From Agapetus fuscipes (taxonomy: Eukaryota > Arthropoda > Insecta > Trichoptera > Glossosomatidae): a stretch of 64,000 nt of DNA. Positions 4,141-10,512 of this stretch are shown in pieces. Location of the stretch: the NCBI GenBank assembly GCA_951799405.1, contig OX637339.1, forward strand, positions 14,260,001 to 14,324,000. The letters run 5' to 3'. Positions within the stretch are counted from its first letter, which is position 1, and every line of letters begins with the position of its first letter. Under the pieces are notes generated by a model. The model did no database searches. It saw only the letters and a program-made list of their open reading frames with translations, and was not told the DNA's origin. A program made the translations under genes and the position numbers.

Positions 4141-7100
4141 ATGGGACCTCCAGGTAACTTAAAACTACATTAGTTAACTATTGAACATGCTATTCAGCCA
4201 TTATTTTATTAATTTGAGATGTTTTACCCTAGTACATGTCGCCGGCAATGTGACGAACACATGTTGACTTTTTTCTTTGAGGTTAAATGTAGAGATTTTA
4301 CAAGGTTCTACGCGTTAGAATCGTTGCTTATTTACTGAATTCGTTGCGTTAAAGTGAATAATTTTTTTTTTGTTGAAACACTTCGGTTTGTTGAACACAT
4401 TTTTTTGTTATGAAAAAGTTAGGTTATGTCGATTCCTCGTTATCAGTGGATGAAAAATGCGTGATTTTCAATTCAGATTTTTAGATTATAAAAACCGTGC
4501 TTTCATTGTGAAGATACTCTGAATTAGCAACACTGCAATTTGTTTTTATGTACACTGAGTAGCTGAAATAATTAATTCAAATTTAGGATTCTCAAGTTGT
4601 CTGGGATCTCCTCAGCGATTCTAAAACCTCCATTTACAGAAAGTCCTCGGCAGAGCCGGTTAGTAGTTGTTCAATAATGTCAAGTTTGTCTTTCTTATAA
4701 CATTAGACTGCTTAAATGTTTTTTTCTTATTATATTTACTATTCCTTGACTTATAGCTTGGTATGAGGCTGACCACCCATACTGTAAAAAATGGTTCACT
4801 TTGCCAATGTCACTCCTGTTTCAGGGAAGGTCGGTAAGAGTTGCAGGGCTTATGTTCATTTAAGATTGGGTTTTTATATTCTAGGTCCACATGCGACATG
4901 TGTGAGCGCAAAATTATGCATGACTGCTTATGGGAATTCATTTAATATGAATCTCAAATGATACACATCTTTGCTACTTAGATTTAGATTTTTAGATCTG
5001 GGTCCATTGAGCCAACGATATTGGCCTTTAAATCGGTGAAGTGTGCTCGTTATGCTTGGAACACGTTTGTAGGAAAGTAAACCCAAACAGTGCGTATATA
5101 ATCTAAGTTGCAAGTATATATTTCAAATGCATTCTCACATGAAGACACCTTTAGGTTGGAGCTCACGCCGCATGTGTACTTACAACGTAAAAACCCAATC
5201 TCAAGTGAACATAAGTCCTGCAACTCTTGTCTGAAACAAGGGTGACATTCGCCAAGTGAAACCTTTTTTACAGTATGGGTGGTCAGCCTCATACCGACTT
5301 GTATGTCAAGGAACCTCTCATTGTAGTGTAGCCGTGACTGCACTTTGTCCGTGATTGCAGAGACCTGGATTGGACTGTAGTTTGATTGTGTTATTGGTCA
5401 TGATCACTGTTGATTCACCATATTGTTTTGTTCCAGGGTTTTCCCCTAGAGAGGGTGGTGGTGGCTTCAGAGGCAGAGGTGGTGGTCGCGGCGGTGGCCG
5501 TGGGGGGTTTGGAGGAGGCGGGGGGGATGACGGAGGGGGCAGATTTGAGAGGAGGGGTGGCGGCAGGGGGGGCTTCGGCGGACGTGGTGGCGGAGGAGGT
5601 AAGAAACAAAACTGAAATATCTTATTGAACTGGTAATACTATCCAGTATTTTTTTTATGTTGAAGCTGCCGATATGTTATCTGTGCTTGTTTAAATATTG
5701 AAATACTGTATAAAAAATTTCAAAAAAAAAAATATATTAAACAAAGATATAACTGTATATTAGATCAATATAAATACTTTATTTGGTTTAATTACACTTG
5801 GTCATTTTATTTTATCTCTATTGCAACCCTCCAAAATTCTACTCGCTAGCTCGCAAATTGCGAGTGACTTTTGTTTGGTTGCGAGTGTGCTTTTCTTTAT
5901 CTGAAAGTATCATTTTGCCAGTTAATAATACCATTAATAATATTCCCAGTGAAAATAAAACTGAGATGTTTTGGAAAGTGTCAAAAAGGCGTTAAAAATT
6001 ATAAACAGGAACAGTTCACGGGAGTTTTTTTGGGTGAATTTTGGAGGGTTGCTCTATTGTAAAAGGCCTAGGCTGTCCATAAATTAATAAAAAAATATTT
6101 GAAGGCGGGAGCTTTTAAAATGATGCATTGTACCCATTGATAATATATTTTCCCAAGGATAGACAATAGACTTGGCACCAATTAAAAAGTATTATGTTGT
6201 TCTGTGTAGCCAAAGGTGTCCTTAGCAACTGATTGGAATATTTAGTTGTCTCTTTTCCCTAGTAACCTGGTTCTGTCGCAACTTACAATGTGTGATATCA
6301 CTATTTGTTTTTTTATGGATATTATTAACAAGTAATTTCTTAACGTCACCTCAATGTCACCCTTATGTTTTAGGCAAGTTGTCTCCGCTTCAAATGATGA
6401 ACACAATCACCTTACTCTGTATCCAGTCGTGATGACTATATATACCACTACCCAATTCTGAAGGCCATCTCCCACCACCTAGCACACCGTGTAATCTCAC
6501 ATTGCACGCAATACAAGCATTCCTCCTGTTGTATTTCAGGTCGGGGAACTCCGAGAGGAAGGGGCGGCGGCCGAGGGGGCAGGGGAGGGGGCGCAGGAGG
6601 ATTCAAGGGAGGAAAACAAGTCGTTATTGAGCCCCATAGGTAAGGAAAACTGTTATTATAATTAATAGGGTGTTTCTAAAAACAAGCTGATATTATTTAT
6701 AAACTGCATTTCTCTATAAAAGTTGAGTAAATTTCAAAGAAAACAACTTGCTTAGGATGTTTATCAGTACCCGGAGTATAAAACATTACATAAACTCTGT
6801 TTAATCAAATAATCTACGAAAACATACTAACTACCCTCATGTCTTCCATACAGATTCTTGCTTACTTTGTAAGAAACTCCTATCCCCTTTTCATATAATG
6901 TGGTTTTGTCTATGTAAAGGCGTCTACCCTTTTGCGAAATGTATGGGATCACCAAATAAACCTCACCTCAGCACGTGATAGCTAACATAATATAAGCTTG
7001 CTATAACTTTGTAACTGGATAAAAAAATGTGGTATTTTACATGATGTAGTTTATACAAACTTTCGTTCTTCCTAAATGCTCTTGCATTGCGGATAGCTTT

Positions 7101-10100: not shown

Positions 10101-10512
10101 GGACGCTCTGTCCAGGGGTTACAAGTTCCTCAAACCATACACCGTCCGATATCAAGTGTGAGGTAGAACTTACTTGACATTGATTTATTTTTATTTAATG
10201 ATGAACAAAAATATAAATGCACTTTCTGGACCAATCCATGAAGACTATATATACCACTACCCAATTCTGACGGAGAAATCCAACCTCAAAACATTCCCTC
10301 CGACCTAGACATCAAATCTGAACATAACCTTACATTTTCTTTTGCAGGCCTCTTGTATTGACTCTACGGCACAACCTGAAGCTGTATTTGCCGCAGAAGT
10401 CAAGAAACTACAAGCTGATAAACTGAAACCTCAAGAACAGATCACCCTGGAGCCATATGAGAGAGATCACGCTGTGGTAGTGGGAGTTTTCAGACCACCA
10501 ACTAAATCATAG
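4141..10512 (+). CDS. Fib: fibrillarin, rRNA 2'-O-methyltransferase (8 exons)
   Basis: Catalytic subunit of box C/D snoRNPs in the nucleolus; it transfers methyl groups from SAM to guide-selected rRNA riboses and also methylates a histone H2A glutamine. Exons: 4141-4153, 5437-5598, 6540-6639, 7187-7289, 7797-7967, 8654-8775, 9470-9593, 10348-10512. They sum to 960 nt with consistent phases, giving 319 residues plus TAG, the normal length. Residues about 5-83 form the Gly/Arg-rich domain. Then come VVIEPHR (about 86-92), HAGVFIARGKEDALVT, the SAM motif GAASGT (167-172), the HPHKYR region and ERDHAVVVG near the end. Intron 6 starts with GC, not GT. Intron 1 holds two inverted repeats, and introns 2-7 each hold a box C/D-like RNA. 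Start chosen because MGPPGFSPRE joins exons 1 and 2 in phase. Confidence 0.96.
4742..4990 (+). repeat. dispersed repeat family R, copy in fibrillarin intron 1
   Basis: About 250-bp repeat found some twenty times in this window. It begins TTCCTTGACTTATAGGTTGG, has a conserved core CACCCCTGTTTCAGGGAAGG and ends TTTGCAACTTAGATTAG. No ORF and no clear terminal inverted repeats; class not determined. Confidence 0.75.
5099..5313 (-). repeat. family R, inverted partner in intron 1
   Basis: Opposite orientation to the copy 110 bp upstream, so the intron 1 transcript contains a near full-length inverted pair able to form a long duplex. Confidence 0.75.
6389..6466 (+). ncRNA. box C/D snoRNA candidate, fibrillarin intron 2
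   Basis: Box C ATGATGA (6394-6400), D' CTGT (6417-6420), C' GTGATGA (6429-6435), box D CTGA (6458-6461). The two internal boxes and both guide tracts are spaced as in a canonical C/D RNA. Box D ends 78 nt before exon 3, the position favoured by intron-encoded C/D snoRNAs. A short terminal stem is possible (GCTT upstream, AGGC downstream). The guide before D reads tatataccactacccaatt, predicting a target of AAUUGGGUAGUGGUAU; the rRNA site was not identified. Confidence 0.8.
7036..7113 (+). ncRNA. weak box C/D snoRNA candidate, intron 3
   Basis: Degenerate box C ATGATGT (7041-7047) and box D CTGA (7105-7108). Inner boxes are not clear and the guide tract differs from the other introns. The main support is position: D ends 78 nt before exon 4, the same distance as in introns 2, 4, 5 and 7. 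Confidence 0.4.
7645..7724 (+). ncRNA. box C/D snoRNA candidate, intron 4
   Basis: Box C ATGATGA (7650-7656), D' CTGT (7679-7682), C' TTGATGA (7689-7695), D CTGA (7716-7719), 77 nt before exon 5. The D' guide (cccttact) matches the introns 2 and 5 guides (accttact) except for one base. The D guide (tacatactacaaccttt) has diverged from the common tatataccactacccaatt, so it may address another site or be decaying. Confidence 0.7.
8083..8250 (-). repeat. degenerate SINE family S1 in intron 5
   Basis: Inverted copy. The 3' part resembles 'cgcattgtacctgaaggggt', and the tRNA-like head is visible as 'ctctatcaactgagctatcg', i.e. a box A on the minus strand. Confidence 0.5.
8504..8581 (+). ncRNA. 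box C/D snoRNA candidate, intron 5
   Basis: Box C ATGATGA (8509-8515), D' CTGT (8532-8535), C' TTGATGA (8544-8550), D CTGA (8573-8576), ending 77 nt before exon 6. The D guide is identical to that in introns 2, 6 and 7; the D' guide is shared with intron 2 (caccttact). Clearly a paralogue of the intron 2 RNA. Confidence 0.8.
8776..8777 (+). other. GC 5' splice site of fibrillarin intron 6
   Basis: Exon 6 ends ...AAATACAG and the intron starts GCAAGT. Only this junction joins codons for HKYR|MLVGMVD in phase; the nearby GT at 8780 would break the frame. GC donors normally need a strong match elsewhere, and here the AG|GCAAGT context is otherwise ideal. Confidence 0.85.
9320..9402 (+). ncRNA. 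box C/D snoRNA candidate, intron 6
   Basis: Box C ATGATGA (9325-9331), D' CTGG (9353-9356), C' ATGAAGA (9365-9371, degenerate), D CTGA (9394-9397), ending 72 nt before exon 7. The D guide is the common one (accactacccaatt); the D' guide (aaatgcacttt) differs from introns 2, 4 and 5. The 73 nt from box C to box D are identical to the intron 7 copy. No convincing terminal stem. Confidence 0.75.
9790..9960 (+). repeat. degenerate SINE family S2 in fibrillarin intron 7
   Basis: A tRNA-like head with 'tcacacttgtaatcggaagg' and a box B-like 'ggttcgatgagtac' is followed by the family's 'gcacaaaaaatata' and a decayed body. Confidence 0.5.
10193..10275 (+). ncRNA. box C/D snoRNA candidate, intron 7
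   Basis: Box C ATGATGA (10198-10204), D' CTGG (10226-10229), C' ATGAAGA (10238-10244), D CTGA (10267-10270), 77 nt before exon 8. Body identical to the intron 6 copy while the flanks are unrelated. A 5-bp external stem is possible (gattt upstream, aaatc downstream). Confidence 0.75.

What the first reader, a model, noticed from the sequence alone, without database searches (positions are those of the whole stretch)
6389..10275. Fibrillarin gene carries a box C/D snoRNA in nearly every intron
Seen: introns 2, 4, 5, 6 and 7 each contain ATGATGA, an internal D'-like and C'-like pair, and CTGA, 60-75 nt apart. Box D ends 72-78 nt before the next exon every time. Known: fibrillarin is the methyltransferase of C/D snoRNPs; intronic C/D snoRNAs favour about 70-80 nt to the 3' splice site; an Arabidopsis fibrillarin gene also hosts a C/D snoRNA. 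Inference: splicing of this pre-mRNA yields both the enzyme and five or six of its guides, a self-coupled supply. Such a dense array in an animal fibrillarin gene is, as far as I know, not described.
Basis: partly seen in the sequence, partly recalled or inferred. Interest (0 to 1): 0.92.

Follow-up and report, generated by a model that had tools for sequence, protein, structure and literature searches.

The report
Guide-RNA array inside caddisfly fibrillarin gene
In what is most likely a caddisfly, five introns of the gene for the RNA-methylating enzyme fibrillarin each carry a box C/D guide-RNA sequence of one family, so splicing one transcript could make both the enzyme and some of its guides; this is an unusually dense case of a known arrangement, and expression is not yet shown.

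Summary
Introns 2, 4, 5, 6 and 7 (5 of 7) of an intact eight-exon fibrillarin gene each hold one box C/D element of 68-73 nt, box D ending 72-78 nt before the next exon. It is not chance: 5 of the 6 top C/D-like hits in the window lie in these introns, against 0.2 expected, and inter-intron similarity is confined to the elements. Corrections: the organism is most likely a caddisfly, not a moth or butterfly; there are five elements, not six; they are one paralogous family. Four of five share an identical D-side guide; two are identical over 74 nt. Own-genome searches, of limited sensitivity, found them only in this gene. Best explanation: splicing-coupled C/D snoRNA genes. The target is not established; the best candidate is an 18S rRNA segment (1 of 200 shuffles as good); the 3' half of 28S could not be tested. 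Terminal stems are weak, and no expression or second species could be examined. Precedents: Arabidopsis fibrillarin genes (U60.1f/U60.2f) and SNORD86 in NOP56. A dense new member of a known kind.

The parts
4141..10512 (+). Fibrillarin coding region, 8 exons, 319 aa; intron 6 begins GC (GC-AG intron)
   Evidence: Exons joined in frame; 226/237 identical to Arctopsyche grandis fibrillarin
6394..6461 (+). S1, box C/D snoRNA element in intron 2 (C box to D box)
7650..7719 (+). S2, diverged box C/D family member in intron 4
8509..8576 (+). S3, box C/D element in intron 5; same D guide as S1, S4, S5
9325..9397 (+). S4, box C/D element in intron 6; identical to S5 over 74 nt
10198..10270 (+). S5, box C/D element in intron 7; identical to S4 over 74 nt
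7041..7108 (+). Weak box C/D-like stretch in intron 3 (ATGATGT ... CTGA), D end 78 nt before the exon; not counted as a member
   Evidence: Distance; absent from the scan and from the family-model hits

Best explanation
The five elements are intronic box C/D snoRNA genes of one paralogous family that spread through five introns of the fibrillarin gene. Splicing of the fibrillarin pre-mRNA frees each intron. The core proteins assemble on the C/D and C'/D' boxes while the intron is in the spliceosome, which the near-constant 72-78 nt to the 3' splice site suits, and exonucleases trim the rest, leaving snoRNAs of about 75-80 nt. The shared D-side guide then directs 2'-O-methylation of one target RNA, possibly 18S rRNA near nucleotide 1317. 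One transcript thus supplies the methyltransferase and several copies of the same guide. Shown: gene structure, boxes, spacing, placement, paralogy, confinement of similarity to the elements, stronger conservation of the D-side half between S1 and S3. Inferred: expression, processing, protein binding, target, benefit of coupling.
For: Boxes and spacing beyond chance: 5 of 6 top hits in 64 kb against 0.20 expected. Placement fits the 40-50 nt snoRNA-to-branchpoint range that PMC10234308 quotes from earlier work (passages); candidate branch-point adenosines lie 37-50 nt after box D, top-ranked by my recalled matrix in 2 of 5 introns. Inter-intron similarity coincides with the expected mature RNA: S1/S3 align over 6388-6463, about 6 nt before C to 2 nt after D, while the 70-nt flanks compared (S1/S3, S4/S5) are 26-33% identical. 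S1 and S3 differ at 9 of 36 positions in the C-D' half and 0 of 32 in the C'-D half (Fisher P 0.0025), as for a selected guide. The family model finds the five at 63.5-80.1 bits (they are its training set); the next match in the window has 13.3 bits, E 0.0039. Genome searches with S3, S4 and S2 found 4, 3 and 1 matches, each in this gene.
Against: No Rfam family at gathering threshold. Terminal stems are weak: with 15-nt flanks 24 to 284 of 300 shuffles pair as well, with 40-nt flanks 149 to 262 of 300, and the folds are no more stable than shuffles (z 0.23 to -0.95); PMC10234308 reports that expressed human C/D snoRNAs have more stable terminal stems than unexpressed ones, and that expressed ones mostly lie farther from the branch point than the assumed optimum, so the distance rule itself is not strict (passages). 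The target is unproven: only the shared D guide gives an unusual rRNA match (1 of 200 shuffles, six guides tested), and it starts 3 nt away from box D, which is atypical (recalled); S2's D guide and the four D' guides are within the shuffled range. No expression data and no second species could be examined. The genome searches miss some known copies (the S4 query missed S1 and S2, the S3 query missed S2), so copies elsewhere are not excluded.
Confidence: 0.85

Rival explanations
1. Cis-acting autoregulation in the manner of SNORD86 in NOP56: the elements act mainly inside the pre-mRNA as landing sites for C/D proteins, so excess snoRNP protein changes splicing of the fibrillarin transcript; a mature guide role is minor. 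It could coexist with the guide role.
For: Host gene encodes a C/D snoRNP core protein, as with SNORD86, an orphan in NOP56 (PMC11028025 passages). No firm target found. One intron is GC-AG, a class often tied to alternative splicing (recalled).
Against: A protein sensor needs the boxes, not a guide; yet between S1 and S3 the D-side half is the conserved one. The folds show no unusual stability. No alternative transcript could be examined.
Confidence: 0.12
2. Recent snoRNA retrocopies or pseudogene copies with no function, spread by RNA-mediated copying or local duplication.
For: S4 and S5 are identical over exactly 74 nt with unrelated flanks, as a copied mature RNA could be; snoRNA copies by retrotransposition and recombination are known in mammals (PMC8178906, abstract beginning in the search listing). 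Terminal stems are weak, as in unexpressed human copies (PMC10234308 passages).
Against: All five have intact C and D boxes and sit 72-78 nt from the 3' splice site, which neutral insertion would not give; no copies were found elsewhere in the genome at the sensitivity. Identity of S4/S5 begins at the first base of box C, not about 5 nt before it as for a full mature RNA.
Confidence: 0.05
3. Chance box motifs in AT-rich introns.
For: The two-box pattern alone is not enriched significantly in the window.
Against: Four-box scan, placement and repeated identical guide.
Confidence: 0.01

Closest known systems
Arabidopsis FIB1/FIB2 with U60.1f and U60.2f (Barneche et al. 2000: title in a reference list; statement in PMC8351944, passages)
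   Same: Fibrillarin genes that also encode a small nucleolar RNA; the title says it is involved in rRNA methylation.
   Different: Plant; two snoRNAs named for two genes there, five elements in one gene here. No U60f sequence was compared.
SNORD86 in NOP56 (PMC11028025 passages)
   Same: C/D snoRNA in an intron of a gene for a C/D snoRNP core protein; no firm target.
   Different: One snoRNA, with a published sensor role in splicing of NOP56; here five copies and a conserved guide half.
Multi-intron snoRNA host genes: SNHG14 with SNORD116 in 29 and SNORD115 in 48 tandem introns (PMC11608373, abstract beginning in the search listing); Drosophila Uhg genes (PMC4430873 passages; their intron layout is recalled)
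   Same: snoRNAs arrayed over successive introns of one transcript.
   Different: Those hosts are non-coding; here the host encodes the enzyme that would use the guides.

Membership tests
Box C/D snoRNA | C box RUGAUGA near the 5' end and D box CUGA near the 3' end | tested here: met
   5 of 5 elements, no mismatch
Box C/D snoRNA | Internal D' and C' boxes between C and D | tested here: met
   C' 0-1 mismatch, D' 1 mismatch, 5 of 5
Box C/D snoRNA | Terminal stem joining the ends | tested here: inconclusive
   Weak or absent; 24-284 of 300 shuffles as good with 15-nt flanks. S1 and S3 fold with a 5-bp end stem, but it overlaps box D; S2, S4 and S5 do not
Box C/D snoRNA | For intronic ones: position near 40-50 nt before the branch point (not strict) | tested here: met
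   D box 72-78 nt before exon, 5 of 5; branch-point candidates 37-50 nt after D, chosen among several
Box C/D snoRNA | Antisense element next to D or D' pairing with a target RNA | tested here: inconclusive
   Shared D guide pairs 16 nt with 1 mismatch to 18S, starting 3 nt from D, 1 of 200 shuffles; the other five guides within the shuffled range; 28S 3' half and snRNAs not tested
Box C/D snoRNA | Stable RNA bound by fibrillarin, NOP56, NOP58 and 15.5K | not testable with these tools
   No RNA or binding data
Any named Rfam snoRNA family | Score at or above the family's gathering threshold | tested here: not met
   0 matches; best sub-threshold snR61 30.2 bits against 45
SNORD86-type cis sensor | Lies in the gene of a C/D snoRNP core protein | tested here: met
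   Fibrillarin gene
SNORD86-type cis sensor | Switch between two conformations with alternative splicing of the host | not testable with these tools
   Only single-sequence folds computed; no transcripts available
Arabidopsis U60f-type fibrillarin-hosted snoRNA | Sequence or target homology to U60f | not tested
   No U60f sequence fetched

The most novel reading that the evidence does not exclude
The array is a feedback device: five C/D sites in the fibrillarin pre-mRNA titrate the very complex that the gene's product completes, so intron processing in five of seven introns ties enzyme output to free snoRNP protein, while the shared guide makes a multi-copy RNA from the same transcript. That would be an animal fibrillarin gene regulated by its own guide RNAs.
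Probability: 0.12. Interest if true: 0.75.

Novelty: new member of a known kind. Interest (0 to 1): 0.5.

Why it matters
Genes for snoRNP proteins hosting guide RNAs are known in a plant (fibrillarin) and in human (NOP56). A five-copy array of one guide family in an animal fibrillarin gene would be a further case, on the catalytic subunit, and gives an accessible natural system for asking whether such hosting serves balanced supply, autoregulation, or only the choice of a highly expressed host.

Tried and rejected
Rfam at gathering threshold gave nothing; at E<=5 nine weak matches, seven of them to snoRNA families on S2, S4 or S5 (snR61, U83, CD11, DdR1), not used as identity. A sixth element in intron 3 was considered and rejected. 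A weak family-model hit at 32837-32889 minus (13.3 bits, E 0.0039) looks to me like part of a protein-coding frame (read by eye) and was set aside; its E-value is low, so this is a judgement. A hit at 46501-46578 minus was read but not resolved.

Guide targets: 18S, 5.8S, spacers and the 5' part of 28S were taken from one contig of the own genome (L006; recognised with probes from memory). An unconstrained search also found a perfect 11-nt match of the start of the shared guide, next to C', to 18S at L006:2547-2557; it is AT-rich and far from box D, so it was not taken as a methylation target. The 3' part of 28S was sought in the own genome, in viral contigs, in bacterial and archaeal contigs, in the two genomes behind L007 and L009 and in plasmids (one search matched 345 bacterial records over at most part of the query, not opened). 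Only apparent mobile-element ends at a 28S site and a short 28S piece at the start of one viral-collection contig turned up (L007-L010, L014), so it stays untested. snRNAs and tRNAs were not tested by any search. Pairing of the guides with the fibrillarin pre-mRNA itself: best is S2's D guide in intron 7, 11 nt, 13 of 200 shuffles as good; the shared D guide 10 nt in intron 7, 46 of 200; the other four 79 to 195 of 200; not taken as evidence.

Control: about 10 kb around each of two other Nop-domain genes (L022, L023; by my reading of the exons NOP58 and NOP56, labels recalled) with a slightly wider scan gave one hit at score 4, inside a reading frame, and none at the level of S1-S5 (which printed scores of 4 and more), no family-model hit at E<=5 and one sub-threshold snoRNA name (sR52, 26.7 bits against 50). 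These stretches may not hold the whole genes; the third Nop-domain locus (C18) was not scanned.

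Full report
Gene and organism. The window is part of a 618-Mb genome. A fibrillarin gene on the plus strand has eight exons that join in frame to 319 aa. Among the 120 listed hits to residues 90-319, the closest by identity is Arctopsyche grandis at 96%, a hydropsychid caddisfly, 226 of 237 aligned positions identical; listed Lepidoptera are at 92-94%. (A Ladona fulva hit ranks first by bits but is 88% identical.) The COX1 protein of the same assembly has its best hit in a Trichoptera cluster at 84%, the other 119 listed hits at most 81%. 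So the host is most likely a caddisfly; the finding's 'Lepidoptera' is probably wrong at order level.

Elements. Introns 2, 4, 5, 6 and 7 each hold one element with ATGATGA, D'-like CTGT or CTGG, a C'-like box and CTGA; C-to-D lengths are 68, 70, 68, 73 and 73 nt, and box D ends 78, 77, 77, 72 and 77 nt before the exon. A four-box scan of both strands gave 14 hits, 6 at the two top scores, 5 of them these; simulated sequence gave 0.20 at those scores (20 simulations). A two-box pattern alone is not significant and by its spacing limit catches 3 of the 5.

Paralogy. Of 21 intron pairs, 8 of the 10 among introns 2, 4, 5, 6 and 7 align with scores 49-148, each over the elements (5-7 over the D side only); 4-6 aligns there weakly (23) and 4-7 does not (25, elsewhere). 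The 11 pairs with intron 1 or 3 score 22-29. S4 and S5 are identical over 74 nt, from the first base of box C to one base past box D, with 70-nt flanks 26% and 30% identical; S1/S3 flanks are 33%. S1, S3, S4 and S5 share the guide between C' and D without change; S2 is diverged. S1 and S3 differ at 9 of 36 positions before C' and 0 of 32 from C' on (P 0.0025). Selection on the D guide with turnover elsewhere is the simplest reading; gene conversion for S4/S5 is not excluded.

Copies elsewhere. DNA queries of S3, S4 and S2 in the own genome found 4, 3 and 1 matches, each in this gene. Sensitivity is limited: the S4 query missed S1 and S2, the S3 query missed S2, and the S2 query found only itself. 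About 20 kb around two other Nop-domain genes held no comparable element.

Processing. PMC10234308 (passages) quotes earlier work for a 40-50 nt optimum between C/D snoRNA and branch point, with a terminal stem compensating when the distance is larger. Here the stems are weak and the distance is kept in all five, a coherent pattern for splicing-coupled assembly. Against it, the same paper reports that expressed human C/D snoRNAs have more stable terminal stems than unexpressed ones and that expressed ones mostly lie farther from the branch point than the assumed optimum. Branch-point candidates at 37-50 nt exist in the five introns but were picked among several and rank first in 2 of 5.

Target. 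Guides were required to start within 3 nt of the box. The shared D guide pairs over 16 nt with one mismatch and some G-U pairs to L006:2324-2339, in 18S; 1 of 200 shuffled guides did as well over all 6.5 kb of rDNA and 2 of 400 over 18S (0, 1 and 0 of 60). Six distinct guides were tested, the segment is rich in G and T, and the duplex starts 3 nt from D, so this is a lead. By the fifth-nucleotide rule (recalled) it predicts 18S about G1317 (numbering mine). From recall, neighbouring positions are methylated in human and fly. The other five guides are within the shuffled range (28 to 149 of 200 as good over the rDNA). 28S beyond about its middle, snRNAs and tRNAs were not tested.

What is known. 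Arabidopsis Fib1 and Fib2 led to U60.1f and U60.2f (PMC8351944 passages; title of Barneche et al. 2000 in reference lists). SNORD86 lies in NOP56 and is described as a sensor of NOP56 level (PMC11028025 passages). For an animal fibrillarin gene as host, the titles and abstract beginnings listed (several lists capped; empty) showed no such statement; two fibrillarin papers searched for 'intron' and snoRNA or host words (passages only) do not report it there. The library lacks most subscription journals, so absence from print is not shown.

Verdict. A real, dense intronic C/D snoRNA family in a fibrillarin gene by sequence evidence, a new member of a known kind, with expression unshown, an open target and an open question of feedback.

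Noticed in passing
window 8776-9469: Intron 6 of the fibrillarin gene starts with GC (GC-AG intron) and carries S4.
   Followed up: no
window 1920-2995: Looks like a fragment of a non-LTR retrotransposon reverse transcriptase (read by eye only).
   Followed up: no
window 46501-46578, minus: One further C/D-like stretch reaches the score of four of the five fibrillarin elements in the scan; its context was read but not resolved.
   Followed up: partly
window 8205-8245 and 9800-9870: tRNA-like stretches, perhaps SINE pieces, in introns 5 and 7 (by eye).
   Followed up: no
L007, L008, L009, L010: Contigs in MAGs labelled bacterial that carry 28S sequence at what I recall as the insertion site of R2-type elements; likely host DNA in the bins.
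   Followed up: partly
L014, about 1-135: A contig of the viral collection begins with a piece of eukaryotic 28S rRNA (extent by eye).
   Followed up: no
L023 9113-9227, minus: A 5S rRNA match beside a Nop-domain gene of the same genome, 68.6 bits.
   Followed up: no
L006 6501: The one 18S match found in the assembly lies on a contig of exactly 20,000 bases that ends inside 28S by my reading.
   Followed up: partly
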